Assembly: GCA_026168455.1 (NCBI GenBank) | Contig: CM047427.1 | Span: 13,855,505 to 13,919,504 of the forward strand | Source: Theocolax elegans | Lineage: Eukaryota > Arthropoda > Insecta > Hymenoptera > Cerocephalidae | Reading direction: 5' to 3' | Length of the DNA: 64,000 bases | In this document: piece by piece, positions 7,155 to 60,688 of the stretch | Position numbering within the stretch: the first letter of the stretch is position 1 | Layout of the letters: each line of letters begins with the position of its first letter | Position numbers and translations under genes: made by a program | Notes under the pieces: generated by a model | Seen by the model: the letters and a program-made list of their open reading frames with translations, nothing else | What the model was told of the DNA's origin: nothing | Databases searched by the model: none

Positions 7155-7167
7155 AAAAATTTTTATT
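7155..7167 (+). repeat. Left target-site duplication of the ribozyme array
   Basis: The 13-mer AAAAATTTTTATT here is repeated exactly at the right edge. Removing the insertion plus one copy restores a continuous foldback-element sequence that aligns with the uninterrupted copy near 2.5 kb. Because the insert's first bases are also T- and A-rich, the boundary is uncertain by a few bases. Confidence 0.75.
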
Positions 7168-7468
7168 TTAAAATTTGAATTTTCCAACTATTAGAAAAAT
7201 TCGTGAATTTATTGCTTTCTTACACTTTAAGTTTTAAGATATATGAATTTATCGATCTTTACAAGCCAAAGAAATATATTCTTAACATCTCAAATAAGGC
7301 GGACTGTATTAATACCAGCCACTTAATAAACCTCACAGGATGAGTGTTTGAAAAAAGACTAAGACAAGCTAGGTCAACAAAAATATAAAATTTAGTTGTT
7401 TGTAGTATGAAATTAATAAAACCTTAATAAGACGGAAAAAAAAAAAAAAAAAAAAAAAAAAGAAAAAA

Positions 7469-7536
7469 TTATATTTCGCCCTGAGTATGCCTGGTGGGCT
7501 CATCAGTAGATCCAGGCATCTCGTCTCTAGATATAA
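7469..7536 (-). ncRNA. Hammerhead ribozyme, inverted copy
   Basis: This is the same ribozyme on the minus strand in the truncated inverted copy at the left end of the array. It keeps CTGATGA, the GCCC/GGGC stem II, GAAA and the TTATA/TATAA stem III, with cleavage predicted between 7530 and 7529. It is one base shorter than the others (68 against 69 nt): the 3' strand of stem I reads ATCTA instead of CTCTA, leaving four pairs in stem I. The complementary 8-nt stretches in loops I and II are intact. It is probably still foldable but has no partner repeat for release of a unit-length RNA. Confidence 0.85.
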
Positions 7537-7556
7537 ATAATTTTTATATCTGTCAT

Positions 7557-7625
7557 TTATATCTAGAGACGAGATGCCTGGACTCTACTGATGAGCCCAC
7601 CAGGCATACTCAGGGCGAAATATAA
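7557..7625 (+). ncRNA. Type III hammerhead ribozyme, copy 1
   Basis: This is a self-cleaving RNA, described here as the reference copy. Stem III is TTATA (7557-7561) with TATAA (7621-7625). The cleavage triplet is AUC, with the cut after C7563. Stem I is TAGAG (7564-7568) with CTCTA (7583-7587), around a 14-nt loop. CTGATGA (7588-7594) is the invariant core. Stem II is GCCC (7595-7598) with GGGC (7613-7616), around a 14-nt loop. GAAA (7617-7620) completes the core. Loop I ATGCCTGG (7574-7581) is perfectly complementary to loop II CCAGGCAT (7600-7607), giving a possible kissing interaction of the kind that speeds natural hammerheads. Because stem III is the open one, this is topology type III. 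Every base conserved in the family is present. Confidence 0.94.
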
Positions 7626-7966
7626 TTTTTTCTTTTTTTTTTTTTTTTTTTTTTCCGTCTTATTAAGGTTTTATTAATTTCATACTACAAACAACTAAAT
7701 TTTATATTTTTGTTGACCTAGCTTGTCTTAGTCTTTTTTCAAACACTCATCCTGTGAGGTTTATTAAGTGGCTGGTATTAATACAGTCCGCCTTATTTGA
7801 GATGTTAAGAATATATTTCTTTGGCTTGTAAAGATCGATAAATTCATATATCTTAAAACTTAAAGTGTAAGAAAGCAATAAATTCACGAATTTTTCTAAT
7901 AGTTGGAAAATTCAAATTTTAAAATTATATGGCATTGGATCACGAATATGCCTTATGTAACAATAG

Positions 7967-8084
7967 TCTGACGATTAAGACATTAGTTCTATGTAAGTGC
8001 GTTAGGGGGCTACCTGTTAATATGTGGCACTTATTAAAGTTTGCTATCGGTAGGGCATATATACCCCATGTCTTCCTCGTCAGA
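7967..8084 (+). ncRNA. Structured RNA domain of the ribozyme unit (six copies)
   Basis: TCTGACGA (7967-7974) pairs with TCGTCAGA (8077-8084). After a TT/CC internal loop, AAGACAT (7977-7983) pairs with ATGTCTT (8068-8074). Inside this 15-pair closing stem, TAAGTGC (7994-8000) pairs with GCACTTA (8027-8033). CTACC within that hairpin loop (8010-8014) could pair with GGTAG (8049-8053) as a pseudoknot. The same domain starts at 8534, 9095, 9663, 10222 and 10791 in the later monomers. Such dense complementarity in an AT-rich unit without an open frame suggests a functional RNA fold, for example for recognition by a borrowed reverse transcriptase or a host ligase. That role is a guess, and I do not recognise the fold as a known ribozyme class. 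Confidence 0.5.
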
Positions 8085-8121
8085 ATACAGCTAGTTTTCA
8101 AATAATTTTTATATCTGTCAT

Positions 8122-8190
8122 TTATATCTAGAGACGAGATGCCTGGACTCTACTGATGAGCCCACCAGGCATACTCAGGGCGAAATATAA
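8122..8190 (+). ncRNA. Type III hammerhead ribozyme, copy 2
   Basis: The sequence matches copy 1 in all stems, both core segments and both complementary loops. The cut is predicted after C8128. With copy 1 it would release a 565-nt monomer RNA from a transcript of the array. Confidence 0.93.
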
Positions 8191-8688
8191 TTTTTTCTTT
8201 TTTTTTTTTTTTTTTTTTTTTCCGTCTTATTAAGGTTTTATTAATTTCATACTACAAACAACTAAATTTTATATTTTTGTTGACCTAGCTTGTCTTAGTC
8301 TTTTTTCAAACACTCATCCTGTGAGGTTTATTAAGTGGCTGGTATTAATACAGTCCGCCTTATTTGAGATGTTAAGAATATATTTCTTTGGCTTGTAAAG
8401 ATCGATAAATTCATATATCTTAAAACTTAAAGTGTAAGAAAGCAATAAATTCACGAATTTTTCTAATAGTTGGAAAATTCAAATTTTAAAATTATATGGC
8501 ATTGGATCACGAATATGCCTTATGTAACAATAGTCTGACGATTAAGACATTAGTTCTATGTAAGTGCGTTAGGGGGCTACCTGTTAATATGTGGCACTTA
8601 TTAAAGTTTGCTATCGGTAGGGCATATATACCCCATGTCTTCCTCGTCAGAATACAGCTAGTTTTCAAATAATTTTTATATCTGTCAT

Positions 8689-8757
8689 TTATATCTAGAG
8701 ACGAGATGCCTGGACTCTACTGATGAGCCCACCAGGCATACTCAGGGCGAAATATAA
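8689..8757 (+). ncRNA. Type III hammerhead ribozyme, copy 3
   Basis: All conserved core bases, three stems and the loop I-loop II complementarity are intact. The cut is predicted after C8695. It is followed by an 18-nt poly-T run. Confidence 0.93.
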
Positions 8758-9249
8758 TTTTTTCTTTTTTTTTTTTTTTTTTCCGTCTTATTAAGGTTTT
8801 ATTAATTTCATACTACAAACAACTAAATTTTATATTTTTGTTGACCTAGCTTGTCTTAGTCTTTTTTCAAACACTCATCCTGTGAGGTTTATTAAGTGGC
8901 TGGTATTAATACAGTCCGCCTTATTTGAGATGTTAAGAATATATTTCTTTGGCTTGTAAAGATCGATAAATTCATATATCTTAAAACTTAAAGTGTAAGA
9001 AAGCAATAAATTCACGAATTTTTCTAATAGTTGGAAAATTCAAATTTTAAAATTATATGGCATTGGATCACGAATATGCCTTATGTAACAATAGTCTGAC
9101 GATTAAGACATTAGTTCTATGTAAGTGCGTTAGGGGGCTACCTGTTAATATGTGGCACTTATTAAAGTTTGCTATCGGTAGGGCATATATACCCCATGTC
9201 TTCCTCGTCAGAATACAGCTAGTTTTCAAATAATTTTTATATCTGTCAT

Positions 9250-9318
9250 TTATATCTAGAGACGAGATGCCTGGACTCTACTGATGAGCCCACCAGGCAT
9301 ACTCAGGGCGAAATACAA
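9250..9318 (+). ncRNA. Type III hammerhead ribozyme, copy 4 (stem III mismatch)
   Basis: The core and stems I and II are intact. The 3' strand of stem III reads TACAA instead of TATAA: C9316 faces A9252, so the five-pair stem III loses its middle pair. The cut is predicted after C9256. This is the only clear ribozyme-damaging substitution among the forward copies and may lower activity of this copy. Confidence 0.9.
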
Positions 9319-9817
9319 TTTTTTCTTTTTTTTTTTTTTTTTTTTTTTTTCCGTCTTATTAAGGTTTTATTAATTTCATACTACAAACAACTAAATTTTA
9401 TATTTTTGTTGACCTAGCTTGTCTTAGTCTTTTTTCAAACACTCATCCTGTGAGGTTTATTAAGTGGCTGGTATTAATACAGTCCGCCTTATTTGAGATG
9501 TTAAGAATATATTTCTTTGGCTTGTAAAGATCGATAAATTCATATATCTTAAAACTTAAAGTGTAAGAAAGCAATAAATTCACGAATTTTTCTAATAGTT
9601 GGAAAATTCAAATTTTAAAATTATATGGCATTGGATCACGAATATGCCTTATGTAACAATAGTCTGACGATTAAGACATTAGTTCTATGTAAGTGCGTTA
9701 GGGGGCTACCTGTTAATATGTGGCACTTATTAAAGTTTGCTATCGGTAGGGCATATATACCCCATGTCTTCCTCGTCAGAATACAGCTAGTTTTCAAATA
9801 ATTTTTATATCTGTCAT

Positions 9818-9886
9818 TTATATCTAGAGACGAGATGCCTGGACTCTACTGATGAGCCCACCAGGCATACTCAGGGCGAAATATAA
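9818..9886 (+). ncRNA. Type III hammerhead ribozyme, copy 5
   Basis: Intact core, stems and loop complementarity, with the cut predicted after C9824. It is followed by the shortest poly-T run in the array, 16 nt. Confidence 0.93.
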
Positions 9887-10376
9887 TTTTTTCTTTTTTT
9901 TTTTTTTTTCCGTCTTATTAAGGTTTTATTAATTTCATACTACAAACAACTAAATTTTATATTTTTGTTGACCTAGCTTGTCTTAGTCTTTTTTCAAACA
10001 CTCATCCTGTGAGGTTTATTAAGTGGCTGGTATTAATACAGTCCGCCTTATTTGAGATGTTAAGAATATATTTCTTTGGCTTGTAAAGATCGATAAATTC
10101 ATATATCTTAAAACTTAAAGTGTAAGAAAGCAATAAATTCACGAATTTTTCTAATAGTTGGAAAATTCAAATTTTAAAATTATATGGCATTGGATCACGA
10201 ATATGCCTTATGTAACAATAGTCTGACGATTAAGACATTAGTTCTATGTAAGTGCGTTAGGGGGCTACCTGTTAATATGTGGCACTTATTAAAGTTTGCT
10301 ATCGGTAGGGCATATATACCCCATGTCTTCCTCGTCAGAATACAGCTAGTTTTCAAATAATTTTTATATCTGTCAT

Positions 10377-10445
10377 TTATATCTAGAGACGAGATGCCTG
10401 GACTCTACTGATGAGCCCACCAGGCATACTCAGGGCGAAATATAA
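10377..10445 (+). ncRNA. Type III hammerhead ribozyme, copy 6
   Basis: Intact core, stems and loop complementarity, with the cut predicted after C10383. It is followed by the longest poly-T run in the forward copies, 26 nt. Confidence 0.93.
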
Positions 10446-10945
10446 TTTTTTCTTTTTTTTTTTTTTTTTTTTTTTTTTCCGTCTTATTAAGGTTTTATTA
10501 ATTTCATACTACAAACAACTAAATTTTATATTTTTGTTGACCTAGCTTGTCTTAGTCTTTTTTCAAACACTCATCCTGTGAGGTTTATTAAGTGGCTGGT
10601 ATTAATACAGTCCGCCTTATTTGAGATGTTAAGAATATATTTCTTTGGCTTGTAAAGATCGATAAATTCATATATCTTAAAACTTAAAGTGTAAGAAAGC
10701 AATAAATTCACGAATTTTTCTAATAGTTGGAAAATTCAAATTTTAAAATTATATGGCATTGGATCACGAATATGCCTTATGTAACAATAGTCTGACGATT
10801 AAGACATTAGTTCTATGTAAGTGCGTTAGGGGGCTACCTGTTAATATGTGGCACTTATTAAAGTTTGCTATCGGTAGGGCATATATACCCCATGTCTTCC
10901 TCGTCAGAATACAGCTAGTTTTCAAATAATTTTTATATCTGTCAT

Positions 10946-11014
10946 TTATATCTAGAGACGAGATGCCTGGACTCTACTGATGAGCCCACCAGGCATACTC
11001 AGGGCGAAATATAA
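10946..11014 (+). ncRNA. Type III hammerhead ribozyme, copy 7
   Basis: Intact core, stems and loop complementarity, with the cut predicted after C10952. This is the last ribozyme of the array; the monomer after it breaks off about 298 nt downstream, where the host foldback element resumes. Confidence 0.93.
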
Positions 11015-11246
11015 TTTTTTCTTTTTTTTTTTTTTTTTTTTTTTTTCCGTCTTATTAAGGTTTTATTAATTTCATACTACAAACAACTAAATTTTATATT
11101 TTTGTTGACCTAGCTTGTCTTAGTCTTTTTTCAAACACTCATCCTGTGAGGTTTATTAAGTGGCTGGTATTAATACAGTCCGCCTTATTTGAGATGTTAA
11201 GAATATATTTCTTTGGCTTGTAAAGATCGATAAATTCATATATCTT

Positions 11247-11259
11247 AAAAATTTTTATT
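11247..11259 (+). repeat. Right target-site duplication of the ribozyme array
   Basis: This is the second copy of the 13-mer. Its first four A residues also match the array unit (CTTAAAA), so priming of reverse transcription by microhomology is possible. The foldback right arm (ATTTGCTTATA and onward) follows directly. Confidence 0.75.
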
Positions 11260-14981: not shown

Positions 14982-17113
14982 GTTTGTTAACAATGCTGTA
15001 ATGCTTTATTAATAAAATATTTTATAAATAATTATATCGAATATTTGTTTATAAGTGACCTTATTTACAAAAAGAGCTTAAAATAAAATTTTAATCATAC
15101 CTAACCTCGAAATATGTAGAATATATATGGGGTATTCCACGTGAAGTGGTCCGATCAAAATTTTAAAATGCCCCAAATTTTGGGTTCACATTACAAATGT
15201 TTTTCAGAATACAGAAAAAAATTTTTAGGTACTGGAATTTATTAGTTCAAAAGTTATTCTAACCTCAAAAAGTGAACTTTTTCCAGTTTTTTTCAACACC
15301 AGCTGGGTTCATCGCTATTTAACTCAAAATCTATCAACTTTTACTATACAACATTATATGTAACATTCGTTGCTAATTATGTCTAGAATTTATCCTTCTG
15401 GGTTAGAATTTCCAATCTCAAGGTTAATGACAAATAAACTACATGTCAACATTCAACTTAAAAAAAAAACTAACTTCGCCACAATTGATTTTTTATCCAA
15501 AAGTCCAAAAGAAAGCTTGGAGCAATACCTTTCAAATGATCTGTAGCATTTTTATGGCCTTCAATTCTGTAAAAAGTTATGATAATTTAAAGAAAGACAA
15601 AAAATTCACAAAAATTAACATGGTATTTCCCATTTAAATTTTTAAAAAAAATTTCGTCTTTCTTAAATTATCATAACTTTTTACAGAATTGAAGGCCATA
15701 AAAATGCTACAGATCATTTGAAAGGTATTGCTCCAAGCTTTCTTTTGGACTTTTGGATAAAAAAATCAATTGTGGCGAAGTTAGTTTTTTTTTAAGTTGA
15801 ATGTTGACATGTAGTTTATTTGTCATTAACCTTGAGATTGGAAATTCTAACCCAGAAGGATAAATTCTAGACATAATTAGCAACGAATGTTACATATAAT
15901 GTTGTATAGTAAAAGTTGATAGATTTTGAGTTAAATAGCGATGAACCCAGCTGGTGTTGAAAAAAACTGGAAAAAGTTCACTTTTTGAGGTTAGAATAAC
16001 TTTTGAACTAATAAATTCCAGTACCTAAAAATTTTTTTCTGTATTCTGAAAAACATTTGCAATGTGTACCCAAAATTTGGGGCATTTTAAAATTTTGATC
16101 GGACCACTTCACGTGGAATACCCCATATAAATAAGTATTTTTAAAAAATCTGCCATTGATGTAATTTGAATGATTATTTCGTAAACTGTTTATTTTTATG
16201 AGTAATTGAACTAGCTAAGTATGACAAATTTATTATTTTACAGTTTTTCAAATATAAGGTTTTGAAATAGACGACGAGATGAACCATATTTTAAGGCTGC
16301 TGTTGGTTAAACCGTTGGTCAAGATCTTTCATTTTCGTTACTATACACTATGGCCTTGCATCGAAAAATTTCCAATCTAAAAAAAATATATACCAAGATA
16401 GTAATAACTACACGCGCGTATATACGCATGATCATTCCGTAAACTGAAATATCTTTCCTCTCGATAGTAAAATGAGAGATGGTCACTCGAGCCAATACTT
16501 ATGATGATTACATTAATTTAGGGTCTACATCAAAAGTTCGGTCTTCTTCTTCCTTTTTTTTTATTTTTCAAAAGCTCATATTAATATTACCTGCGGGAGC
16601 TTATCTGCGGTCTCCTGAAATCCAACGTATCATTTTAATTCCCCGAGGGCTTTCACTTTATCTTTATCCTTATATATGTATAATATATAGCCTTTTTCCT
16701 TCGTGTCTCTTTCTTTTCTATCTCCCTCTCGAAAAATCGCCAGCCGCGTCTCCGGGGCGTCAGGAAGCAAAGCTCGAGCTCGACGGTAATAAAGAAGGTA
16801 GAAGGTACGATAAAGATTAAACTTTATCTGAGAGACCTAATGCACATGCGAGTTAATTGTAAGCTTATAATACAGCTACGCCTTTCACGCCGACGATATA
16901 TATATATATAAGTGTACGTAGTACGAGACAAAAAGTTTGAACACATACGAAATGTGCTAGTATTTCGTTGAAAATTTTCATTAGAGTTTTTTGTTTAGTA
17001 TTAATTGCAGTGTGATAAATATTAAATTACAGGCACGACACCTTGTTTTTACGTATTTATTATTACCCATTAATCGCACGCGGTATCCAATAATTGCTTA
17101 TTAAATTTATTAC
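14982..17113 (+). repeat. Tandem duplication I, copy 1 (2.13 kb)
   Basis: It runs from GTTTGTTAACAATGCTGTAA to TTAAATTTATTAC and is repeated directly downstream with a period of about 2130 bp. It contains the palindromic MITE and AT-rich single-copy DNA. No gene is evident. Confidence 0.85.
15128..16125. mobile_element. Palindromic ~1-kb MITE, copy 1
   Basis: The terminal inverted repeats begin TGGGGTATTCCACGTGAAGT and the two arms are near-perfect reverse complements of about 480 bp each, turning near 15.6 kb. TATA flanks both ends (15124-15127 and 16126-16129), a likely target-site duplication. There is no transposase. One strand could fold into a hairpin of almost 1 kb. The superfamily is not assigned. 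Confidence 0.85.
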
Positions 17114-19240
17114 GTTTGTTAACAATGCTGTAATGCTTTATTAATAAAATATTTTATAAATAATTATATCGAATATTTGTTTATAAGTGACCTTATTTAC
17201 AAAAAGAGCTTAAAATAAAATTTTAATCATACCTAACCTCGAAATATGTAGAATATATAGGGGTATTCCACGTGAAGTGGTCCGATCAAAATTTTAAAAT
17301 GCCCCAAATTTTGGGTTCACATTACAAATGTTTTTCAGAATACAGAAAAAAATTTTAGGTACTGGAATTTATTAGTTCAAAAGTTATTCTAACCTCAAAA
17401 GTGAACTTTTTCCAGTTTTTTTTCAACACCAGCTGGGTTCATCGCTATTTAACTCAAAATCTATCAACCTTTTACTATACAACATTATATGTAACATTCG
17501 TTGCTAATTATGTCTAGAAATTTATCCTTCTGGTTAGAAATTTCCAATCTCAAGGTTAATGACAAATAACTACATGTCAACATTCACCTTAAAAAAAACT
17601 AACTTCGCCACAATTGATTTTTTTATCCAAAAGTCCAAAAGAAAGCTTGGAGCAATACCTTTCAAATGATCTGTAGCATTTTTATGGCCTTCAATTCTGT
17701 AAAAAGTTATGATAATTTAAAGAAAGACAAAAAATTCACAAAATTAACATGGTATTCCCATTTAAATTTTGTAACAAAAATTTCGTCTTTCTTTAAATTA
17801 TCATAACTTTTACAGAATTGAAGGCCATAAAAATGCTACAGATCATTTGAAAGGTATTGCTCCAAGCTTTCTTTTGGACTTTTGGATAAAAAATCAATTG
17901 TGCGAAGTTAGTTTTTTTTTTAAGTTGAATGTTGACATGTAGTTTATTTGTCATTAACCTTGAGATTGGAAATTCTAACCCAGAAGGATAAATTCTAGAC
18001 ATAATTAGCAACGAATGTTACATATAATGTTGTATAGTAAAAGTTGATAGATTTTGAGGTTAAATAGCGATGAACCCAGCTGGTGTTGAAAAAAACTGGA
18101 AAAAGTTCACTTTTTGAGGTTAGAATAACTTTTGAACTAATAAATTCCAGTACCTAAAAATTTTTTTTCTGTATTCTGAAAAACATTTGCAATGTGTACC
18201 CAAAATTTGGGGCATTTTAAAATTTTGATCGGACCACTTCACGTGGAATACCCCATATAAATAAGTATTTTTAAAAAATCTGCCATTGATGTAATTTGAA
18301 TGATTATTTCGTAAACTGTTTATTTTTATGAGTAATTGAACTAGCTAAGTATGACAAATTTATTATTTTACAGTTTTTCAAATATAAGGTTTTGAAATAG
18401 ACGACGAGATGAACCATATTTTAAGGCTGCTGTTGGTTAAACCGTTGGTCAAGATCTTTCATTTTCGTTACTATACACTATGGCCTTGCATCGAAAAATT
18501 TCCAATCTAAAAAAAATATATACCAAGATAGTAATAACTACACGCGCGTATATACGCATGATCATTCCGTAAACTGAAATATCTTTCCTCTCGATAGTAA
18601 AATGAGAGATGGTCACTCGAGCCAATACTTATGATGATTACATTAATTTAGGGTCTACATCAAAAGTTCGGTCTTCTTCTTCCTTTTTTTTTATTTTTCA
18701 AAAGCTCATATTAATATTACCTGCGGGAGCTTATCTGCGGTCTCCTGAAATCCAACGTATCATTTTAATTCCCCGAGGGCTTTCACTTTATCTTTATCCT
18801 TATATATGTATATATATAGCCTTTTTCCTTCGTGTCTCTTTCTTTTCTATCTCCCTCTCGAAAAATCGCCAGCCGCGTCTCCGGGGCGTCAGGAAGCAAA
18901 GCTCGAGCTCGACGGTAATAAAGAAGGTAGAAGGTACGATAAAGATTAAACTTTATCTGAGAGACCTAATGCACATGCGAGTTAATTGTAAGCTTATAAT
19001 ACAGCTACGCCTTTCACGCCGACGATATATATATATAAGTGTACGTAGTACGAGACAAAAAGTTTGAACACATACGAAATGTGCTAGTATTTCGTTGAAA
19101 ATTTTCATTAGAGTTTTTTGTTTAGTATTAATTGCAGTGTGATAAATATTAAATTACAGGTACGACACCTTGTTTTTACGTATTTATTATTACCCATTAA
19201 TCGCACGCGGTATCCAATAATTGCTTATTAAATTTATTAC
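17114..19240 (+). repeat. Tandem duplication I, copy 2
   Basis: This is a direct repeat of 14982-17113. A third, partial GTTCGTTAA follows at 19241, so the junction is in a short homology. Differences are mostly one-base indels within 17258-17960; the remaining 1.2 kb is almost identical, differing mainly in TA-repeat length. Confidence 0.85.
17260..18255. mobile_element. Palindromic ~1-kb MITE, copy 2 (inside the tandem duplicate)
   Basis: This is the copy of the palindromic element carried along by the 2.13-kb tandem duplication rather than an independent insertion, because its flanks match those of copy 1. Its left arm has many single-base gains and losses relative to copy 1 (for example TAG instead of TATGG at the very start, and altered A or T runs), while its right arm is nearly unchanged. 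Confidence 0.8.
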
Positions 19241-22200
19241 GTTCGTTAATTAATTATATTTTCAACGTTGGTGATAAAGATGAAAAATCCGGATTTAAAT
19301 TCTCTGTAAAATTGGATTGTACATATAAATTCACGTGTATGTATATAAAATGGGGAGTATTAAAAGTATTAAATACCATAACGAAACTCTTTCTAATTGG
19401 ACTACTTTTCACGGTCTCCATGTATAGATCATTTTTCATTCGCTCTCGAGTATATTACGGAACATGAAGCTCTTTTGTCGATTTAACCCTCGCGGAATCT
19501 GGTTTTACTTGCAACAATTCGTAATTCAATTACTTTCTCAATTTTATCCCATCTCGTATTTCCTCTCTCGTGCTTCACACACACACACACACATATTATA
19601 CACACACGTACACGCAAATGTTTATTTGAAAATTAAGTTTAACGAGTTTGATAATTCGATTGTCTTATGAGCTTATAATTAGTTCAGCACAGTGAGGTTC
19701 GATGTCATTCCGGCGTATAAAATTAAAAAAGTTAATTTATATTTTAGCAGTGCTTTATGACCCCCGATAAAATTTTATTGGAATCGTCATCAAAATTTTC
19801 GATTGTACACTCTAGGCTATACAAACCCACGCGCGAATATTAAAACTTTAATCTCGTAAAAAGTTTAATTTAACGATTACGGATAAATATTTGTACATTA
19901 AGGTGTTTAAGTAATGCTATACAATGGTAATTATAAACATAGTATTGGTAGGAAATAACAATACTTTTTTGAAAAGTATAGTTGCAAAGGGTGAAATTCA
20001 CTGAAAAAATGAATATTTTCCTTATAAGCTTCTTCTTAAATACGCGACTGAAAAAAAGTTAACTGCTTGCTTTTTCTGATGATTCTTTTGTGACTAAAAG
20101 GAATTTTAGAAATCTATTTTAATCACATTTCCTCTGTACTTACATTTATAATTTCAAAAATAATTTTACTTGATTACAGATGATTAATTATAAATGAACA
20201 GCTTAATTATAAACGATTCACATTAGAGCAAGCAGATTTTCTTTTTATTCTAAGATATATTAAGGAAGAATTCCGTTTATATCAATAATCTATTATTTAG
20301 TGTGTATAGATTTAGATACTCTATTTATTCGTTTTTAATAAATGAACTTCTATCTATTATACATACCTGTTCCTTAAAATAATAATTGCAATTATTTCAT
20401 GAAATCATGAATGAGCACAAAATTTTTATTATTCAGATATATCTATAGATATTAAATTTTGTACACCACGACAATCGCTTACCTCGAAATGTGTTTATAT
20501 ACCTTTTACTTTGTCAAATAATTCACAATTCCATATGATTGAATTTTCAAATACGAATGTGATTACGAAACTTTGAAAATTTGAAAAATTCGTAGCGAAC
20601 GTTATGATTGTTTCATCAGTCAAAAATTTGCACATTTTCAAGTTTAAAAGTCGGTATTGATTGAAGTTTTGACATTGACTACTTGTCAGATATGAAATTG
20701 AATGTAACTCAATTTTCATGAAAAAGGGACTGAATGTACTACTCAAAAGCATATGATGCTATACTGCATCGAGCACTAAATTTATGAAAAATAAATAAAT
20801 ATTTAAATTAGATATTCAAATGCGTTTTAGAAAATGATTGATAGAAATTATTTTAATAATTTTAGATAAAAAAATAATATTGCAGTTCAAATTTATGACT
20901 ATTGGTATTTTTCACTCCTCTTCCTTAATTGAAATTATTGTTATTATTACATTTCCAAGCTTTTCAATAAATCAAGTCTTTCAATTATTGATTTGATATT
21001 GAATTTAATTTTATTTCCCTTAACTTCTAGCGTTCTGCTCATCATTATTGAAACGGATTTCCTTAAAATAAAATATTTATTCTACTAATATCATTTTATC
21101 TTGGCAATCGTTAATATCAAAGTACATTATTTTTTTATATTAATAGATTAATACTTGTATAATTGAATATTTCCCTTGAATACTAAATATCAACACGTGA
21201 ACATTCCAATAAAGAAATAATCATAGCCGAAATTCTAGATGAGGAATTCGAAAAAAAAAGTTAAACTATGCGTTAAGAACTCTATTAACTGTAATCCTCG
21301 ATAAAATCCAAGTGCCCGTGTAATATGACCATTTAGACAAAATATAGAACCACCTACTACTTCTACTTCTTCTGCTATATATATACATATGCCCGTTAAG
21401 ATAATGATGATATTTAAAAGGTTCTCTTTCTTCGTTTTTTATCTTGAACCCGTATTAGGGTTGACCGGAAAAACATTATGAATCCTCGATTAAGCATCGT
21501 ATACAGTGTATATAGACAACACCTTTGGAAATAACCGAGTTAATGACTTGCCGTGCGACTTTTTACACGGCCAAATCACCTTAATCTCTTGGGGTCACGC
21601 GATTGGGTGTGTCAAATCTCAGTTAATTGCTCTCAAGACTACTTTATTGAAATACCTTTAATTGCTCGATCAGGCATAATAATTATTTCATTTTTAGTTT
21701 GTTTTTTATAAATTTACTGTCGTTAAAATATATACTGGACTTGTTTTGTTTTCTCATGATTACAGGTATATGTACGAAGCTATTAAGAATTCACAAGTAA
21801 TTAACGAAGCATTATTTTGACTCTGAAAATGAGTGCAAAGGTCGAAATATCGAAATATTTGTTTTTCTTATATGAGAAGTTAATACTTCTTTTTTTTCAA
21901 TTAAAATATTTATAAATATTATTTCAGTTCTGCAAATATAATTATTAAAAATTAAATTTCTATTGTTCAGAGTATTTATATATTTACAAAATCGTATTTA
22001 ATTCGTTCGGTCTTTAAGTTACAATTATTACGGTCAACATAGCGTAAGATGTTAAATAATTACATGGAAAAACTTTGACATTATTTAGTTTTTATAATAA
22101 ATACAGTGATTATTTAAATTATTAGTATTATTATTTAAAATTTTGTAAACGTAACTCTTCAAAAAAACAAATAAATAAGTCTTTGACACAACTAAAAATA

Positions 22201-22330: not shown

Positions 22331-23078
22331 TTTCGTTACCATTATTCTCCTCTCTCTCTCTCTCTTTCTTTCTCTTTCCCTCTCACTCTCGTTCTTCTCT
22401 AACTTTTGGAATAGAATAAAAATTATGCGCTTCAGGGTTTTTTTATGTGTTCGACGAAAAAAGAAAATTGGGCAGTCCTTGTACCAACAGCGTTGTTGTA
22501 CGAATAATACAGGTTGGTTTTTCATAGTGGAACATTATCATGGTTTGATAATGTCGTCTCTCTCCTTTTTTTTAGTAATTCAACTTATCGAAACTGTTAA
22601 CTATTCAGTCGTAAAGTTAGTTTCTCACATAAATTATCCATTTACGTAGGTTTTAATGTTATTTTCTAATGATTAAAAAGCACGAATGAATGCATAATAA
22701 AAATGAAATAGATCAAACGACGTTTGAATTATATTCGTGTACCCTAACGATTGAACAGCCGTTTATTTCGGTGTTAATTTAATAAATCCACTAATCGTAC
22801 GAAATTTTAGTAATCTCAACGAGCCAAGAAAAGAGAAAAAGAAAAAAGAATAGATACATTCCGGGGGTCGCTTATAAATCAATTTACGAGTCGAAAATTC
22901 GAAAACACACGTAGACACACATGCACACAGAGTCGCAGGTCATTACTCATCCAAGGAAGTTAAAAGTGTAAGTCTAAAAAAGCCCAGGGTCCCACATCAA
23001 TTAAATAACGATATTTCCGAATGAAGATCCGAGAGACGCAGCGAAATATTCTCCGAGCGTTCAAGACCTCGAGTATAC

Positions 23079-23167
<89 letters not shown>

Positions 23168-23774
23168 TGAGATATTGAATGAGAAGCATCATTAGTTCGT
23201 AGACGCTGTCAATGGGACGACGACAACCATTTGCGGGACGATGTCCATTAGCCCGTCACATCGTCGTTTCTCTTGTGTGATAATCTAGTGATAATGACCG
23301 CTTGTTATATACACGCCGTATCAGCTGCAACCTCGAAGCTACAACGGAGAGAGGAAAGGATGTACACTTTTTCTTTCTTTTTCTTTCGTTACCGCTAATG
23401 CCGATTTGTTTTACCACCCGGGCGATATATCTATATTTATAGAATGCCCGTGAGATGCGCTTCGGAGATCGGTGGGCACATTGTAACGCTGAGCTTATAC
23501 ACTTTCAAATAATATCGAGCTACAACTTCGAAAACTTATTCAGGAAGTATACGTAATTACGTGCGTTGGTCTTTACTCGAAATCATCGGAAATGATACCG
23601 ATAAGTAAGATGAGTAACATTTTGTGAAAAATGTAAAATTTTAATTATTTTATTCAAAAATTTTCTTTCGCATTATTAACGAATAATGTACGACATTGTA
23701 GTTAGTCTTTGCTTATTTGTAGTCAGAACAATTTACATTATAAATTCGTTATCTTAAGCTCCTGTACTATGTAA
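22313..23774 (+). repeat. Tandem duplication II, short copy
   Basis: The order is a CT-tract block, about 0.7 kb of shared sequence, a long (GA)n tract and a 0.6-kb GC-richer block. Compared with the longer second copy it lacks about 438 bp between CT tracts and about 580 bp between GA tracts. Both differences begin and end in microsatellites. It starts directly beside the splice-like motif at 22309/22310. Confidence 0.8.
23084..23160 (+). repeat. (GA)n microsatellite
   Basis: A near-pure GA repeat of about 77 bp at the point where the short copy of duplication II lacks 580 bp relative to the long copy. Confidence 0.95.
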
Positions 23775-23807
23775 AAATAAAACCGGAATACATTTCGTTA
23801 CCATTAT

Positions 23808-23843
<36 letters not shown>

Positions 23844-24979
23844 TCTCTTTTGCTAAACATTCGCACCGTAATAACCCAAAAATTACAAAAATAAATATCA
23901 TTTTATGCCATCGTTGTAAATAAGAAACCCACGAGAAAATCGACGCAGCGTTTCCCCCACCGAAAAAAAAACTCGTATCCACTTTTTTTGTAAACTCTAT
24001 ATAAAAAACCTGTCGCCTCGTTAAGGAGGGCTTGACAGTACATATATTACGCTTGGGGAGTGAGATCGAGACCTCGGAATGTCAGAGAGAATGAAGGGTG
24101 ACTTTGCAGCATCAGCGAGGTTTTTTCTTTTTTTTTTTCGTCGCGCATCCATTACGCGCGAATTTTACGGTACAGTATCCTTTATTTTTCTTACGCGCTT
24201 TTAAAACTAGAACTCGGGGTAATTGTAATAAAAAATTTGGCTTCTATCTCTCTCTCTCTCTCTCTTTCTTTCTCTTTCCCTCTCACTCTCGTTCTTCTCT
24301 AACTTTTGGAATAGAATAAAAATTATGCGCTTCAGGGTTTTTTTATGTGTTCGACGAAAAAAGAAAATTGGGCAGTCCTTGTACCAACAGCGTTGTTGTA
24401 CGAATAATACAGGTTGGTTTTTCATAGTGGAACATTATCATGGTTTGATAATGTCGTCTCTCTCCTTTTTTTTTAGTAATTCAACTTATCGAAACTGTTA
24501 ACTATTCAGTCGTAAAGTTAGTTTCTCACATAAATTATCCATTTACGTAGGTTTTAATGTTATTTTCTAATGATTAAAAAGCACGAATGAATGCATAATA
24601 AAAATGAAATAGATCAAACGACGTTTGAATTATATTCGTGTACCCTAACGATTGAACAGCCGTTTATTTCGGTGTTAATTTAATAAATCCACTAATCGTA
24701 CGAAATTTTAGTAATCTCAACGAGCCAAGAAAAGAGAAAAAGAAAAAAGAATAGATACATTCCGGGGGTCGCTTATAAATCAATTTACGAGTCGAAAATT
24801 CGAAAACACACGTAGACACACATGCACACAGAGTCGCAGGTCATTACTCATCCAAGGAAGTTAAAAGTGTAAGTCTAAAAAAGCCCAGGGTCCCACATCA
24901 ATTAAATAACGATATTTCCGAATGAAGATCCGAGAGACGCAGCGAAATATTCTCCGAGCGTTCAAGACCTCGAGTATAC

Positions 24980-24983
<4 letters not shown>

Positions 24984-25050
<67 letters not shown>
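24984..25050 (+). repeat. (GA)n microsatellite
   Basis: A GA repeat at the left edge of the extra segment in the long copy of duplication II. The matching right-edge tract is at 25577-25641. Confidence 0.95.
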
Positions 25051-25056
<6 letters not shown>

Positions 25057-25576
25057 AGGATAAAGAGGATAAGCGCAGGGGAAGAGTCGTATCAATGAAA
25101 TAGACAGCGCGATGCGGTTCATTATTCATTCGATACAATAGACGTACATCATTCTCACGGAAATGTATATAGTTGCATATACGGCGCGACATTGAGAGAA
25201 AGAGAGATAGAGAAAAGAGGAGCGTCAAGTTATATAAATAGAAAAATCGACGAAGGTGTAACGTACTCCCGTACACATACGCGAATGAACAAAACAGTAT
25301 TGGTATACTGAAAAACATGAAAAATTAACAAAAGACGTACGTACATTTTCAAGTAAGCGCGAAATATACGTGAACGGTCAGACGTGAATATAGTAGACAA
25401 AAAGAAAGTAACCGATGCGTGTATGTGTGTGTGCGATACATCTGAACCGAGGGTGAAACGAGAGAGAAAGAGAATCCGTTCACGCACGTAGCAGGAAGGG
25501 GAAAAAGGAAGTAGCGCGTGTGTGATCGTGTCTTTGATGAAATAAGTACATGCCTCACTTGCACATACTGACCAAA

Positions 25577-25600
25577 GTGAGAGAGTGAGAGAGTGACAGA

Positions 25601-25641
<41 letters not shown>
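25577..25641 (+). repeat. (GA)n microsatellite
   Basis: A GA repeat with a few T and C interruptions at the right edge of the extra segment in duplication II. Confidence 0.9.
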
Positions 25642-25647
<6 letters not shown>

Positions 25648-26256
25648 TGAGATATTGAATGAGAAGCATCATTAGTTCGTAGACGCTGTCAATGGGACGA
25701 CGACAACCATTTGCGGGACGATGTCCATTAGCCCGTCACATCGTCGTTTCTCTTGTGTGATAATCTAGTGATAATGACCGCTTGTTATATACACGCCGTA
25801 TCAGCTGCAACCTCGAAGCTACAACGGAGAGAGGAAAGGATGTACACTTTTTCTTTCTTTTTCTTTCGTTACCGCTAATGCCGATTTGTTTTACCACCCG
25901 GGCGATATATCTATATTTATAGAATGCCCGTGAGATGCGCTTCGGAGATCGGTGGGCACATTGTAACGCTGAGCTTATATACTTTCAAATAATATCGAGC
26001 TACAACTTCGAAAACTTATTCAGGAAGTATACGTAATTAGTTGGTCTTTACTCGAAATCATCGGAAATGATACCGACAAGTAAGATGAGTAACATTTTGT
26101 GAAAAATGTAAAATATTTAATTATTTTATTCGACAAAAATTTTCTTTCGCATTATTAACGAATAATGTACGACATTGTAGTTAGTCTTTGCTTATTTGTA
26201 GTCAGAACAATTTACATTATAAATTCGCTTATCTTAAGCTCCTGTACTATGTAAAA

Positions 26257-28266
26257 ATATATACATATATAAACATTGTTAAATTTTTAATTACCAATAA
26301 AATGCTTTTTACTTTTTATAGTACAAGAAGTGTACTTTTTAAACTTATCTTCTATATTTTAACCAATTTTTATGTTGTACTTAATAATGGTAGATTCATA
26401 AGAATAGTTTGGATATGAAAATTACAAATTGCCTTTAATTTGAAGAAAAATAATCCCAACATTTCATACAAAAAAAATATTACATTTTATATTTTGATCA
26501 TCAATAATCAAATACGTTTCGGCTATAACGTATACCTATATGCATCATTCCTGGCTAATAAAATTAAACTACCCATTGATTACAAATAAATCCATATAGC
26601 GAAAGTTTATCGTTAAATAATGTAATAACAAAATAGATTCAAGGTTTATCCATATAACAAAATGTCAATAGTTTTAGTGACATCAAGTTTCGAGCAATTC
26701 ATAAAGTTTAACCTATCTAAATGTCAAAGTAACAAAAGTCATTCAGCAGTACATACGTGTAAGTATATCTAAATGCAGCAGTGAATCCAAAGGTTTAAAC
26801 GAGACTATAATATCTTTGGATTCAAAAAGTCAAAGTTATACGTAAAGGACTTTCATATATATATATAAACTAGTTTTAGAATTGTTCTAATCGCATTAAA
26901 TTTTACATATATTGGAGATTAAAAGTTACGCTATCATCAACCGCACAATTTTCCACAAAAGGCTCGCATTGCGCAGAAGAAACATCTGCAACTTTTATAT
27001 TTACGAGTCGTAACCCAAGTTAACGCCGCCTACGTCCAATTAATTTCAAACGCGTTAATGTTTATAAATCAACAACATATATTTTGTATTTTTCTCTCGG
27101 ACGCTAAGTCAATCTTAATATAAAGTGAATTGTATTCGAAAGCAACGCGTGTCGACAACGAGACAATGAAGGAAAAAGAACAACCCGAAAAAAATACGTA
27201 TTAATCAAATTTCCGAGACGTTAATAAAATATTCCTTATTATTCACGATTTCGTGGAATCGTCGGTGATAAAGAAGACTCGTCGAATCAAAAGTCACTTT
27301 TCCCGAAGCAAGAAAATCAAGTATCATCGGGAAGGAAAGAAGAATCGCGAGAAAGAGAGTAAAAAAAAAGGATTACAAACAGCATCTGCTTTATATTATG
27401 GGTAAAGAAGAAGAATGTCCGGAGACTCGCGGGACATATTCATGATTTAGTACTGAATTAATTCTTTCAAGTGGACCTAAGGGAGAGAATCGAGTTATGC
27501 ATCTCATTCTATACTCGTTCCTTGTTATACGGGTACTCCTCTTCCGAGCTATATATCTGTATATACGTAGCTATATGAACAATAGCCAACTTTCTTCGGT
27601 ATGAATATTACGTACTCACGATTCCTCCCAGTCATTTCTATTTATTGAATTTCGATGTTTCAAACGTCTCTTCAATTCGATATACTACTATATTTTATTC
27701 TTTAATTTCGATATATGCCTGTCCTACTGTTTTATTCATTATTTTTCGACGCGTTAGAATTAAATAACAATATAACTCTTGCAATGTTCTACGATCTCTT
27801 TATACGATATCAATTTTGCCGCATCAACACAGTGAAATTAAATTTAAATGACTAGACAACGCTTTTTTGAGATAATTCATGTATTACGTGGTAAATCTAA
27901 TGCGGTTTGGTCAACCACATCAAGTTTATACGTTTACCAAGCTTTATGTGTCTCTTTAAACACTTAACTGTGGCAACTCACGAGCATTACCATTTTTAAT
28001 TGTTATAAAAACGTATATGCTTGAAAAATGTAAGTGTAACAGTTACAAAGAAGTATGCGAATTTCTTTTCCTTGATTAATTCGTTCGTGATTCATTTATT
28101 TCCGTAATAATTCAACGAGTATACAAATGTAAAAATTTTTATAACAATTTATCGAATTTACGATGAATACTTGGAAATCTTAATTGCGATAACCCAAATG
28201 ATATTTTAATTCAGATATGTGATCAATTTCATAATACTTATTACCTTATTCAATTATCTAATTATC

Positions 28267-28270: not shown

Positions 28271-28316
<46 letters not shown>
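28271..28316 (+). repeat. (TA)n microsatellite
   Basis: A TA run at the left boundary of duplication III. Sister runs are at 30161-30204 and 32053-32089. Confidence 0.95.
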
Positions 28317-28318
<2 letters not shown>

Positions 28319-30158
28319 GTTTCACGTATATTAGATCCATTAATAAAATATTGACTAATACTCAATGAGGTCTTTCATATCCTCTGTATCATTATTGCGC
28401 TATGTCATCTCTTTATTACTTTTATTAACTCTTTTGACAATTATATTATTAACGTTTCCATTTCTAACGTTAATGTTACTTCAATTTGTAGTTTTAATAA
28501 AGTTTAGTAATTAAATTAATTATATATTTGTACACAATTATTCATTATTACAACCGCATTTTCTTATTGATATATGTTGTTTATTCGTATAATACACTAT
28601 ATTTATTATCGATTCATTAGTAATAGTAAATTTGTGTTTATTTACATTTATAAGTTTAAGACTTATTTTTGATTATTTAAAATTTAAGAAGAAAACATTT
28701 CATTTTCAAAAAATATAATAGTAACTTTGTAGATCGAGTGCAATTGTAAGACTTCTTGCATCCTCTTAAAGGATTATACTGACGAAAATTTGAGCTTAGA
28801 AATTTGGGGTCAAACATATCTCAAAGTCTTAAAGTTTTAGTAAGAGTATTTGACTCTTGAAAAATACATATTAATTAGGATTTACTAATTTCCCTCGTTA
28901 ATTTATACTCATTAATTAAGAAAATGTCTTATTTACTCTGACAATTGTACGAAAATGTATTTTTTAAAAATATTTTTCTTTTTAATTGCGTATGTAAAAA
29001 TTGATTATTTGAAATACTAACTGCTTGAATATTACGATGTTTCTGAAATATCACATTGAACTGAACATACTAAAAATAATTTTTTCAAACTCTCGATGAA
29101 CGTTTTTTAAAAAAAGAATAAAATAATGACAATCTGCTATATTCTAAAATATATATTTTTAAAATTGACGAAATATCGACATTGCCGAAATTTTACACTC
29201 AATTATTGTACTTAAATATATACTTACACGTACAAGCTTACACTTGATATAAAAAAGGAAAAAATAAAATAACTCGCATCTGTCTACTTTAGTTTTGGTC
29301 AACTATATAGCCGTCGATGACGTAACACAGCTGTTATATGGCGGTCGAGTATATAGAATGCACCAAGGGGTGTACATGTGAGCGTGTATGTATGAAGCGA
29401 ACGGATAGCCTGATGAGATGCGCAGGCATGAAGCACTTACGAATTTCCGAGGGTCCCATCCTCCCCCTGCCCCTGCCTCTTCTTCAGGCCGCAAGTGAAG
29501 CCTCGTATCTTGAGCGTCCTATATTCCTTGCCCGATCTCGCACTTTTCTCTCTCTCTCTCTCTCTGTCACTCTCCTTTGTGTGCGCTCCATTTTAGCTTC
29601 GGGCTTCCCAAGACAACGGGGAACTTTATGGCTACGCGACCTCTTACAATGGGAAAGTCAACTTTTCCCTGTCTTCCTTTATACATATATATATGTATAT
29701 TAATACTTCAGCTCGAAGAAAATCATTATTCGCCTATAGGTTTTTTTCTAGGGGGGGGGTTCTACTCGTTCTTCTTTATTTTTTGTTAGGAAGTGTGATC
29801 TACGAGCCGCTTCGATTCGTATTTTAGTTCCGACAGCTTCAATGCAAGCAATCTATAGATCTTGCAGAGCCAACAATATTTACAACAAACGTGATCGAAA
29901 AATCTATTTAGATGTATATTATTACGCATTAAATAATTTTCCATAATTTTAAGGATATACGTATCCAAATTCTGCAAGGATCTATCCTTTCTAATTTATA
30001 AATGAAGTATACAGAACGCAGAAGGGCTCGACAAATTTACTTAGTAAAAAAGTCATGTCCTTTTTTTTCCGTTTACAATTACATAAACAATATTTTCTTA
30101 ATTATTTCAATTTCAAATCGATAATTATATAGTATTAATTTAGTTTAATTTCTACCAG

Positions 30159-30160
<2 letters not shown>
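28271..30160 (+). repeat. Tandem duplication III, copy 1 (1.89 kb)
   Basis: It is bounded by (TA)n at both ends. The interior is AT-rich to about 29.28 kb, then has a GC-richer stretch (29300-29640) with TGACGTAA and a CT tract, then AT-rich DNA. No convincing gene: the open frames differ between the copies because of one-base indels. Confidence 0.85.

Positions 30161-30204
<44 letters not shown>
30161..30204 (+). repeat. (TA)n microsatellite
   Basis: A TA run at the junction between the two copies of duplication III. Confidence 0.95.
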
Positions 30205-30206
<2 letters not shown>

Positions 30207-32050
30207 GTTTCACGTATATTAGATCCATTAATAAAATATTGACTAATACTCAATGAGGTCTTTCATATCCTCTGTATCATTATTGCGCTATGTCATCTCT
30301 TTATTACTTTTATTAACTCTTTTGACAATTATATTATTAACGTTTCCATTTCTAACGTTAATGTTACTTCAATTTGTAGTTTTAATAAAGTTTAGTAATT
30401 AAATTAATTATATATTTGTACACAATTATTCATTATTACAACCGCATTTTCTTATTGATATATGTTGTTTATTCGTATAATACACTATATTTATTATCGA
30501 TTCATTAGTAATAGTAAATTTGTGTTTATTTACATTTATAAGTTTAAGACTTATTTTTGATTATTTAAAATTTAAGAAGAAAACATTTCATTTTCAAAAA
30601 ATATAATAGTAACTTTGTAGATCGAGTGCAATTGTAAGACTTCTTGCATCCTCTTAAAGGATTATACTGACGAAAATTTGAGCTTAGAAATTTGGGGTCA
30701 AACATATCTCAAAGTCTTAAAGTTTTAGTAAGAGTATTTGACTCTTGAAAAATACATATTAATTAGGATTTACTAATTTCCCTCGTTAATTTATACTCAT
30801 TAATTAAGAAAATGTCTTATTTACTCTGACAATTGTACGAAAATGTATTTTTTAAAAATATTTTTCTTTTTTAATTGCGTATGTAAAAATTGATTATTTG
30901 AAATACTAACTGCTTGAATATTACGATGTTTCTGAAATATCACATTGAACTGAACATACTAAAAATAATTTTTTCAAACTCTCGATGAACGTTTTTTAAA
31001 AAAAGAATAAAATAATGACAATCTGCTATATTCTAAAATATATATTTTTAAAATTGACGAAATATCGACATTGCCGAAATTTTACACTCAATTATTGTAC
31101 TTAAATATATACTTACACGTACAAGCTTACACTTGATATAAAAAAGGAAAAAATAAAATAACTCGCATCTGTCTACTTTAGTTTTGGTCAACTATATAGC
31201 CGTCGATGACGTAACACAGCTGTTATATGGCGGTCGAGTATATAGAATGCACCAAGGGGTGTACATGTGAGCGTGTATGTATGAAGCGAACGGATAGCCT
31301 GATGAGATGCGCAGGCATGAAGCACTTACGAATTTCCGAGGGTCCCATCCTCCCCCTGCCCCCTGCCTCTTCTTCAGGCCGCAAGTGAAGCCTCGTATCT
31401 TGAGCGTCCTATATATTCCTTGCCCGATCTCGCACTTTTCTCTCTCTCTCTCTCTCTGTCACTCTCCTTTGTGTGCGCTCCATTTTAGCTTCGGGCTTCC
31501 CAAGACAACGGGGAACTTTATGGCTACGCGACCTCTTACAATGGGAAAGTCAACTTTTCCCTGTCTTCCTTTATACATATATATATGTATATTAATACTT
31601 CAGCTCGAAGAAAATCATTATTCGCCTATAGGTTTTTTTCTAGGGGGGGGGTTCTACTCGTTCTTCTTTATTTTTTTGTTAGGAAGTGTGATCTACGAGC
31701 CGCTTCGATTCGTATTTTAGTTCCGACAGCTTCAATGCAAGCAATCTATAGATCTTGCAGAGCCAACAATATTTACAACAAACGTGATCGAAAAATCTAT
31801 TTAGATGTATATTATTACGCATTAAATAATTTTCCATAATTTTAAGGATATATCGTATCCAAATTCTGCAAGGATCTATCCTTTCTAATTTATAAATGAA
31901 GTATACAGAACGCAGAAGGGCTCGACAAATTTACTTAGTAAAAAAGTCATGTCCTTTTTTTTCCGTTTACAATTACATAAACAATATTTTCTTAATTATT
32001 TCAATTTCAAATCGATAATTATATAGTATTAATTTAGTTTAATTTCTACC

Positions 32051-32052
<2 letters not shown>
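30161..32052 (+). repeat. Tandem duplication III, copy 2
   Basis: This is a direct repeat of 28271-30160 at an offset of 1888-1894 bp, again ending in (TA)n. Differences seen are homopolymer or dinucleotide steps only, for example one extra C near 31360 and one extra TA near 31412. The arrangement fits unequal exchange or a mis-assembly between (TA)n tracts. Confidence 0.85.

Positions 32053-32089
<37 letters not shown>
32053..32089 (+). repeat. (TA)n microsatellite
   Basis: A TA run at the right boundary of duplication III. Confidence 0.95.
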
Positions 32090-57810: not shown

Positions 57811-57825
57811 ATTTTCGAATATATA

Positions 57826-57833
57826 TTCTCTCT

Positions 57834-57862
<29 letters not shown>
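57826..57862 (+). repeat. (CT)n microsatellite
   Basis: A CT run in copy 1 of duplication IV. The copy 2 counterpart at 60645-60684 is a few bases longer. Confidence 0.95.

Positions 57863-57866
<4 letters not shown>

Positions 57867-60650: not shown

Positions 60651-60688
<38 letters not shown>

What the first reader, a model, noticed from the sequence alone, without database searches (positions are those of the whole stretch)
7155..11259. Tandem array of hammerhead-ribozyme units: a probable insect retrozyme
Seven forward copies and one inverted copy of a complete hammerhead core (CTGATGA, closed stem II, GAAA, stem III, AUC cleavage triplet) recur once per ~565-nt non-coding unit. A transcript of the array should cut itself into unit-length RNAs that could circularise. 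Each element is visible in the sequence. Hammerheads in satellites and small circular-RNA retroelements are established, but I do not know of this family being described in insects of this kind.
Basis: partly seen in the sequence, partly recalled or inferred. Interest (0 to 1): 0.95.

Follow-up and report, generated by a model that had tools for sequence, protein, structure and literature searches.

The report
Penelope-style insect retrozyme with type III hammerheads
A string of units that look like self-cutting RNAs in an insect genome proves to be one of many copies of a tiny jumping element whose insertions have the same unusual shape as those of a Penelope-like retrotransposon in that genome, which suggests how such elements spread.

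Summary
Positions 7155-11259 hold seven forward and one inverted copy of a type III hammerhead ribozyme, one per 559-569-nt non-coding unit, flanked by a 13-bp target-site duplication. The window's own 658-Mb genome gives 229 matches to the unit; 150 were listed, in 29 clusters. In 21 elements mapped, 31 of 33 outer ends lie at two unit positions, about 300 (A) and 366 (B); 10 of 12 two-armed, head-to-head elements have one end at each. A second, sequence-unrelated family (481-514-nt units) shows the same anatomy in 3 of 6 loci tested. One Penelope-like element (PLE) of this genome, recognised by its GIY-YIG endonuclease, also has head-to-head arms, two outer ends (30 nt apart), a 13-bp duplication and a stretch resembling the retrozyme at site A. 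A published PLE protein extends both target strands from two internal RNA sites. Best reading: retrozyme RNA, probably circular, is copied by PLE machinery from both target strands. Published animal retrozymes carry type I hammerheads; type III was reported from termite genomes as isolated motifs, and insect elements are mentioned as in preparation. Cleavage, RNA circles and PLE dependence were not tested.

The parts
7155..7167 (.). left target-site duplication AAAAATTTTTATT
7165..7538 (-). minus arm, outer end at site B (unit position 364); its first bases overlap the duplication
7469..7538 (-). inverted hammerhead, one base missing from a stem I strand; not reported by Rfam
7535..11253 (+). 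plus arm: end of one unit, six full units and part of another, outer end at site A (unit position 300)
7556..7625 (+). type III hammerhead 1, cleavage predicted after C7563
8121..8190 (+). type III hammerhead 2, cleavage predicted after C8128
8688..8757 (+). type III hammerhead 3, cleavage predicted after C8695
9249..9318 (+). type III hammerhead 4, T-to-C change in stem III, cleavage predicted after C9256
   Evidence: missed by the strict descriptor
9817..9886 (+). type III hammerhead 5, cleavage predicted after C9824
10376..10445 (+). type III hammerhead 6, cleavage predicted after C10383
10945..11014 (+). type III hammerhead 7, cleavage predicted after C10952
8129..8695 (+). reference unit, 567 nt, from one predicted cleavage site to the next
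11247..11259 (.). right target-site duplication AAAAATTTTTATT; overlaps the A-run of site A

Best explanation
A non-autonomous retrotransposon (retrozyme). A transcript of an array cuts itself at each type III hammerhead into unit-length RNAs, which are ligated into circles of about 565 nt (inferred). The machinery of a Penelope-like element in the same genome cuts AT-rich DNA, and both target 3' ends prime cDNA on hammerhead-sense RNA: one at site A (about 300), the other at site B (about 366). The polymerase passes the template unit repeatedly, and the two cDNAs join head-to-head at variable points, leaving a duplication of usually 13 bp. Shown from sequence: unit, ribozyme anatomy, dispersal, ends, orientation, duplications, a PLE-like element of the same geometry. 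Inferred: cleavage, circularity, and that the PLE enzyme acts in trans.
For: Family: 229 matches, 150 listed in 29 clusters. Outer ends: of 33, 14 at A, 17 at B, 2 elsewhere; 12 two-armed elements, 10 of them with one end at A and one at B. Orientation of the 29 clusters: 12 minus-plus, 1 minus-plus-minus, 8 plus, 8 minus, 0 plus-minus; minus-plus means that both cDNAs copied hammerhead-sense RNA. The script reports duplications of 11-14 bp for 9 of 21 elements, 13 bp in 6. Variants private to one element occur in both its arms: 327 C in L039, 403 A in L043-L044; 6 of 720 pairings score as low as the true one. Family 2: two ends about 36 nt apart in L006-L008, with duplications of 13, 11 and 13 bp. 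The PLE at C6:24250980-24257230: 13-bp duplication, ends 30 nt apart; of 18 GIY-YIG neighbour pairs within 8 kb, 13 are minus-plus and 0 plus-minus. Retrozyme and PLE resemble each other upstream of site A: 2 of 3000 shuffles reach the score, and among 567 windows of the unit only those starting at 262-270 do. PMC11167929 (passages, section 3): a PLE protein cuts AT-rich DNA at ATT, extends both strands and starts at two internal RNA sites, the tail lying between them.
Against: No RNA data; cleavage, ligation and circles untested. The pseudoknot-free energy minimum is a rival hairpin. The PLE is recognised by GIY-YIG, long open frames, a hammerhead core and geometry; its RT domain was not tested. 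The tail match was noticed by eye before it was tested, on one PLE copy; family 2 does not match that copy (683 of 3000 shuffles reach the score). PMC11167929 saw no start-site difference between strands, and insertion with a dead hammerhead, so an uncut multimer could be the template. 12 of 21 elements gave no duplication of 9 bp or more. Arms of L052 differ at 29 positions, and L046, L049 and L054 cannot be told apart. 4 of 11 junctions join inner ends within 30 nt, 1.2 expected, so some may be snap-back. L055.0 and L055.1 have one end off both sites; C704 is minus-plus-plus-minus.
Confidence: 0.75

Rival explanations
1. Same element, but the template is a long uncut multimeric transcript of an existing array, not a circle; the ribozyme matters little for transposition.
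For: For the PLE studied in vitro, hammerhead mutants did not affect insertion (PMC11167929, section 3). Source arrays of many near-identical units exist.
Against: Both arms of L039 and of L043-L044 share private variants. The single-armed element L040-L041 runs 7,621 nt with 13 full units 0.29% apart on average. Weak against a homogeneous source array.
Confidence: 0.2
2. Mobilised by another non-LTR element with twin priming, as in LINE-1, not by a PLE.
For: A-runs at both sites next to AT-rich duplications of about 13 bp would also fit. A LINE-type endonuclease domain lies at one locus (L056).
Against: Two start sites, one per strand, in two unrelated families and in a PLE of the same genome; resemblance at the tail.
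Confidence: 0.12
3. Satellite DNA spread by unequal exchange, with a chance or relic ribozyme.
For: Tandem, homogeneous, non-coding.
Against: Dispersed loci, target-site duplications, two fixed outer ends, head-to-head arms.
Confidence: 0.03
4. Integrated copy of an infectious circular RNA (viroid-like or HDV-like).
For: Termite and toad HDV-like RNAs carry type III hammerheads with loop pseudoknots (PMC7936874, parts 1-3 of 4).
Against: Rfam searches of the array show no hammerhead on the other strand, though they also miss the inverted copy. HDV antigen: 0 matches in the genome, but the control rang nowhere either. No exact match of the family 1 and family 2 ribozymes in viral contigs.
Confidence: 0.04

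Closest known systems
Animal non-LTR retrozymes (PMC7229834; passages and section 13 read)
   Same: Tandem non-coding AT-rich units each with a hammerhead; multimers; duplications longer than the 4 bp of plant retrozymes; PLEs proposed there as a strong candidate helper.
   Different: Those carry type I hammerheads and RNAs of about 170-400 nt; the words inverted and head-to-head do not occur in that text, and the passages read describe no fixed ends.
Plant LTR retrozymes (described in PMC7229834 and PMC7761336, passages; PMC4918200 search listing only)
   Same: Type III hammerhead, units of several hundred nt, circular RNA intermediate.
   Different: LTR-type with PBS, PPT and 4-bp duplications, GC above 55%; here duplications of usually 13 bp and AT-rich units.
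Penelope-like elements (PMC11167929 passages and section 3; PMC3846280 passages)
   Same: Tandem and inverted arms, tail between two RT start sites, both target strands extended, AT-rich targets, a hammerhead.
   Different: PLEs encode RT and GIY-YIG and are described with minimal type I hammerheads (PMC7229834, PMC7761336, passages); this unit encodes nothing of 90 codons or more.
Type III hammerheads with loop pseudoknots in termite and toad HDV-like RNAs and in termite and dipteran genomes (PMC7936874, parts 1-3 of 4 read)
   Same: Type III with Watson-Crick loop 1-loop 2 pairing.
   Different: The termite genome examples were isolated motifs, and its structure searches found none in hymenopterans; here multi-copy arrays with 8 and 11-12 bp of pairing.
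pDo500 satellite of cave crickets (PMC2837043, search listing only)
   Same: Insect tandem repeat with a hammerhead.
   Different: Not compared in sequence here.

Membership tests
Retrozyme | Non-coding repeat unit bounded by hammerhead ribozymes in tandem | tested here: met
Retrozyme | Dispersed retrotransposon insertions with target-site duplications | tested here: met
   29 clusters; duplications of 11-14 bp in 9 of 21 elements
Retrozyme | Circular RNA of unit length made by self-cleavage | not testable with these tools
   No RNA data or assay
Animal non-LTR retrozyme as published | Type I hammerhead | tested here: not met
   Helix III is the open helix, so type III; Hammerhead_3 is the only hammerhead family matched, below its gathering score
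Plant LTR retrozyme | LTRs with PBS and PPT and 4-bp duplications | tested here: not met
   Duplications of 11-14 bp where found and two fixed outer ends; PBS and PPT were not searched for
Penelope-like element | Encodes RT and GIY-YIG endonuclease | tested here: not met
   No ORF of 90 codons or more, stop to stop, lies in the array
Mobilised by PLE machinery | Two internal RT start sites, both target strands extended | tested here: met
   By insertion structure only; no enzyme was tested
Mobilised by PLE machinery | Recognition sequence shared with a PLE of the same genome | tested here: inconclusive
   Family 1 resembles one PLE copy (2 of 3000 shuffles), noticed before it was tested; family 2 does not (683 of 3000)
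HDV-like agent | Delta antigen and ribozymes in both polarities | tested here: not met
   No ORF of 90 codons or more in the array; no hammerhead reported on the other strand of the unit; the genome search for HDV antigen found none, but its control rang nowhere

The most novel reading that the evidence does not exclude
Animal retrozymes can use type III hammerheads, and their retrotransposition is itself rolling-circle: a PLE reverse transcriptase extends both target strands round one RNA circle, each from its own fixed site, and the two cDNAs meet head-to-head. Type III retrozymes would then be a cellular source of ribozymes of the kind seen in HDV-like and viroid-like circles.
Probability: 0.45. 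Interest if true: 0.88.

Novelty: new variant of a known kind. Interest (0 to 1): 0.78.

Why it matters
Which enzyme moves animal retrozymes is open; PMC7229834 names PLEs as a strong candidate (passage). Here two retrozyme families without shown relation and a PLE in one genome share an unusual insertion signature that an in vitro PLE study explains, so the question becomes directly testable. [quoted passage not shown] this element argues against that.

Tried and rejected
Rfam at gathering threshold finds nothing in the window; the better evalue hits, to microRNA and sRNA families, lie on the near-palindrome where the two arms meet. Chance ribozyme: rejected (0 hits in 60 shuffles). Satellite by unequal exchange: rejected on dispersed insertions and fixed ends. 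Homology of the two families outside the ribozyme: not shown (z 2.8, but the best of 300 shuffles equals the score and a rotation beats it). Fold of the circle: family 1 z -1.9, family 2 z -3.2 against 40 shuffles each. Viral and prokaryote contigs: no exact match to the patterns tried; phage records: no match to the unit. HDV antigen: none, control silent. Species not identified: one gene-like ORF is 49% identical to a protein of the wasp Trichomalopsis, and a COX1 fragment gave at most 71%, best to a record labelled Octopus, among mixed animals (best 120 of 877 seen). Hymenopteran is likely, not shown. Hammerhead_1 in the genome: 1 match, 73 of 80241 candidates scored. Literature: the listings of searches show, by title and start of abstract, no paper on an animal type III retrozyme; they cover open-licence PMC only, and PMC7761336 already mentions elements with type III hammerheads in insects as in preparation.

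Not independent: L053.0 and L054 have identical left flanks over 300 nt and L053.1 a similar one; L055.0 and L055.1 share a right flank apart from an indel; so 21 elements are about 18 events. They were kept in the counts. One search treated L043 and L044 as two elements although they are halves of one.
Full report
Observation. The window holds seven forward hammerhead cores and one inverted one. Each forward copy has stem III UUAUAU/AUAUAA (one copy with a change), an AUC triplet, stem I UAGAG/CUCUA, CUGAUGA, stem II GCCC/GGGC and GAAA. The open helix is III, so the ribozyme is type III; Rfam Hammerhead_3 aligns to the seven forward copies at 20.7-25.9 bits, below the gathering score of 48.5, and not to the inverted copy. 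A strict descriptor finds 6 of 7 forward copies and 0 hits in 60 shuffled windows. Loop 1 AUGCCUGG and loop 2 CCAGGCAU are complementary over 8 bp (sequence). Without a pseudoknot the minimum-energy fold is a rival hairpin with the same 8 bp: -19.5 against -7.3 for the three stems, to which the loop pairing could add -12.8 before any penalty.

The unit. Six full units are 559-569 nt; with the poly-T run cut to three T, five are identical and one has one substitution; the poly-T runs are 22, 24, 18, 25, 16 and 26 long. No stop-to-stop frame of 90 codons or more lies in the array.

Genome. The window lies in a 658-Mb assembly. The unit gives 229 matches (29 of 788 candidates scored, so a lower bound), of which 150 were listed; these form 29 clusters, two of which are halves of one element. 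Twenty stretches were fetched, and 21 elements mapped, the window's included. Of 33 outer ends, 14 lie at unit position 295-304 (site A), 17 at 361-371 (site B) and 2 elsewhere. Twelve elements have two arms; 10 have one end at A and one at B; the other two, L055.0 and L055.1, have one end at B and one off both sites. The arm that ends at A is the longer in 7 of 10. About 18 of the 21 are independent events. The element L043-L044 is interrupted by about 9.6 kb of other DNA exactly at a unit boundary, that is at the predicted cleavage site; about 1 kb of it was not fetched, and one ORF of it in L044 carries reverse transcriptase, RNase H and integrase domains.

Duplications. The script reports 11-14 bp for 9 of 21 elements: window, L049, L050, L054, L057 and L058 13 bp; L039 14; L047 12; L056 11. 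For the rest, with L043 and L044 tested as separate halves, it gave nothing or 5-8 bp. By eye the printed flanks suggest longer, partly imperfect repeats for L040-L041, L043-L044, L046 and L048; I did not count these.

Orientation. Of the 29 listed clusters, 12 are minus-plus, 1 is minus-plus-minus, 8 plus only, 8 minus only, none plus-minus. The list is cut off by score: L048, L050, L055 and L058 look one-armed in it and prove minus-plus when fetched. In minus-plus, both cDNAs grow inward from the target ends and both are antisense to the hammerhead, so the template was hammerhead-sense RNA (inference from geometry). Inner ends are scattered over the unit; 4 of 11 junctions join ends within 30 nt, 1.2 expected.

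One template per element. Full units (77) differ by 0.22% within an arm (193 pairs), 0.21% between arms of one element (52 pairs) and 0.87% between elements (2681 pairs; L043 and L044 counted there as two). Two variants are private to one element and present in both its arms (327 C in L039, 403 A in L043-L044). Of 720 pairings of six minus arms with six plus arms, 6 score as low as the true one. Against this, the arms of L052 differ at 29 positions, its minus arm being nearer to other plus arms, and L046, L049 and L054 cannot be told apart.

Family 2. The Rfam Hammerhead_3 search of the genome gave 14 matches (68 of 79098 candidates scored); it did not list family 1. Eight loci, in five regions of the genome, were given as L001-L008 and hold another repeat, of 481-514 nt where full units are seen; the other six matches were not looked at. 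Its type III hammerhead can pair its loops over 11-12 bp in the same register as family 1 (sequence). Across six typed hammerheads from both families, 95.3% of cells form standard pairs (0 of 500 shuffles reach this), 10 of 25 pairs have changes on both sides (shuffled mean 5.1), but further pair types are 14 against a shuffled mean of 16.1; in the loop helix 89.4% of cells pair and four of its eleven pairs are broken in some sequences. Most of this is one contrast between two families. Outside the ribozyme the families are not shown to be related. Of six loci tested for ends, L006, L007 and L008 are minus-plus with ends at 293-296 and 329-333 and duplications of 13, 11 and 13 bp; L002 and L003 are minus-plus, near-copies on the right side, with ends that do not fit and no duplication; L004 has one arm ending at 296 and no duplication.

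The Penelope-like element. GIY-YIG gives 98 matches (150 of 1713 candidates scored). Eighteen neighbouring pairs lie within 8 kb: 13 minus-plus, 3 minus-minus, 2 plus-plus, 0 plus-minus. For one such pair on C6 (open frames of 824 and 833 codons at its GIY-YIG matches) I saw 1,001 bases of the right side and 221 of the left. After the end of the frame comes a hammerhead core; the two sides are identical over 151 nt; then a 13-bp duplication AAGTACCAATAAT follows, the left arm running 30 nt further than the right. The reverse-transcriptase domain was not tested. The 36 nt ending near the right outer end align with the retrozyme before site A (AAGATCGA..., score 26; 2 of 3000 shuffles reach it; of 567 windows of the unit only those starting at 262-270; 2 of 3991 background windows). 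I had noticed this match by eye before testing it. Family 2 does not match this PLE (683 of 3000), and family 1 against family 2 is weak (137 of 3000).

Literature. PMC11167929 (passages and section 3): a PLE protein cuts AT-rich DNA at ATT, extends both strands, starts internally on the RNA, and the tail of genomic copies is the stretch between two start sites; it saw no start-site difference between strands, and hammerhead mutants still inserted. PMC3846280 (passages): PLEs with inverted pseudo-LTRs, optional tail of about 31 bp, duplications of 8-10 bp, head-to-head arrangement ascribed there to self-priming on an antisense template. PMC7229834 (passages and section 13): animal retrozymes with type I hammerheads; PLEs a strong candidate helper. 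PMC7936874 (parts 1-3 of 4): type III hammerheads with loop pseudoknots, isolated in termite genomes, found in dipterans, not found in hymenopterans. PMC7761336 (passages): elements with type III hammerheads in insects mentioned as in preparation. PMC3088659 (passages): the vast majority of hammerheads in eukaryotic repeats are type I. PMC11721086: passages.

Mechanism and confidence. Shown: anatomy, dispersal, ends, orientation, duplications, a PLE-like element with the same geometry. Inferred: cleavage, circles, PLE acting in trans. I put 0.75 on the whole reading, and more on the narrower claim that this is a dispersed retroelement with type III hammerheads.

Noticed in passing
window 14982-19249, 22346-26259, 28273-32089, 56616-62245: Near-identical direct duplications of about 0.7-2.8 kb, 97.4-99.6% alike, and within the first an inverted pair 95.8% alike; real or an assembly effect is open.
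   Followed up: no
window 53990-54481 (-): Gene-like ORF, 49% identical to a Trichomalopsis protein.
   Followed up: partly
L043:5099 to L044:4237: About 9.6 kb of other DNA sits at the hammerhead cleavage site of a retrozyme array; an ORF of it has RT, RNase H and integrase domains.
   Followed up: partly
L052:1500-1800: Near-perfect palindrome with a CTGATGAG core, perhaps a PLE junction.
   Followed up: no
L048:1458-2159 (-): ORF matching Pfam Monjiviricetes_fusion, E 6.9e-57.
   Followed up: no
L042:2165-2806 (+): ORF matching Pfam Pox_A32, E 1.7e-6.
   Followed up: no
retrozyme unit, positions 70-93: Poly-T run whose length differs between elements more than within most of them; on the other strand it is a poly-A downstream of AATAAA (sequence).
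   Followed up: partly
G000 C7:40663787-40664260: COX1 fragment in a large contig, probably a nuclear copy of mitochondrial DNA; open under the invertebrate mitochondrial code.
   Followed up: partly
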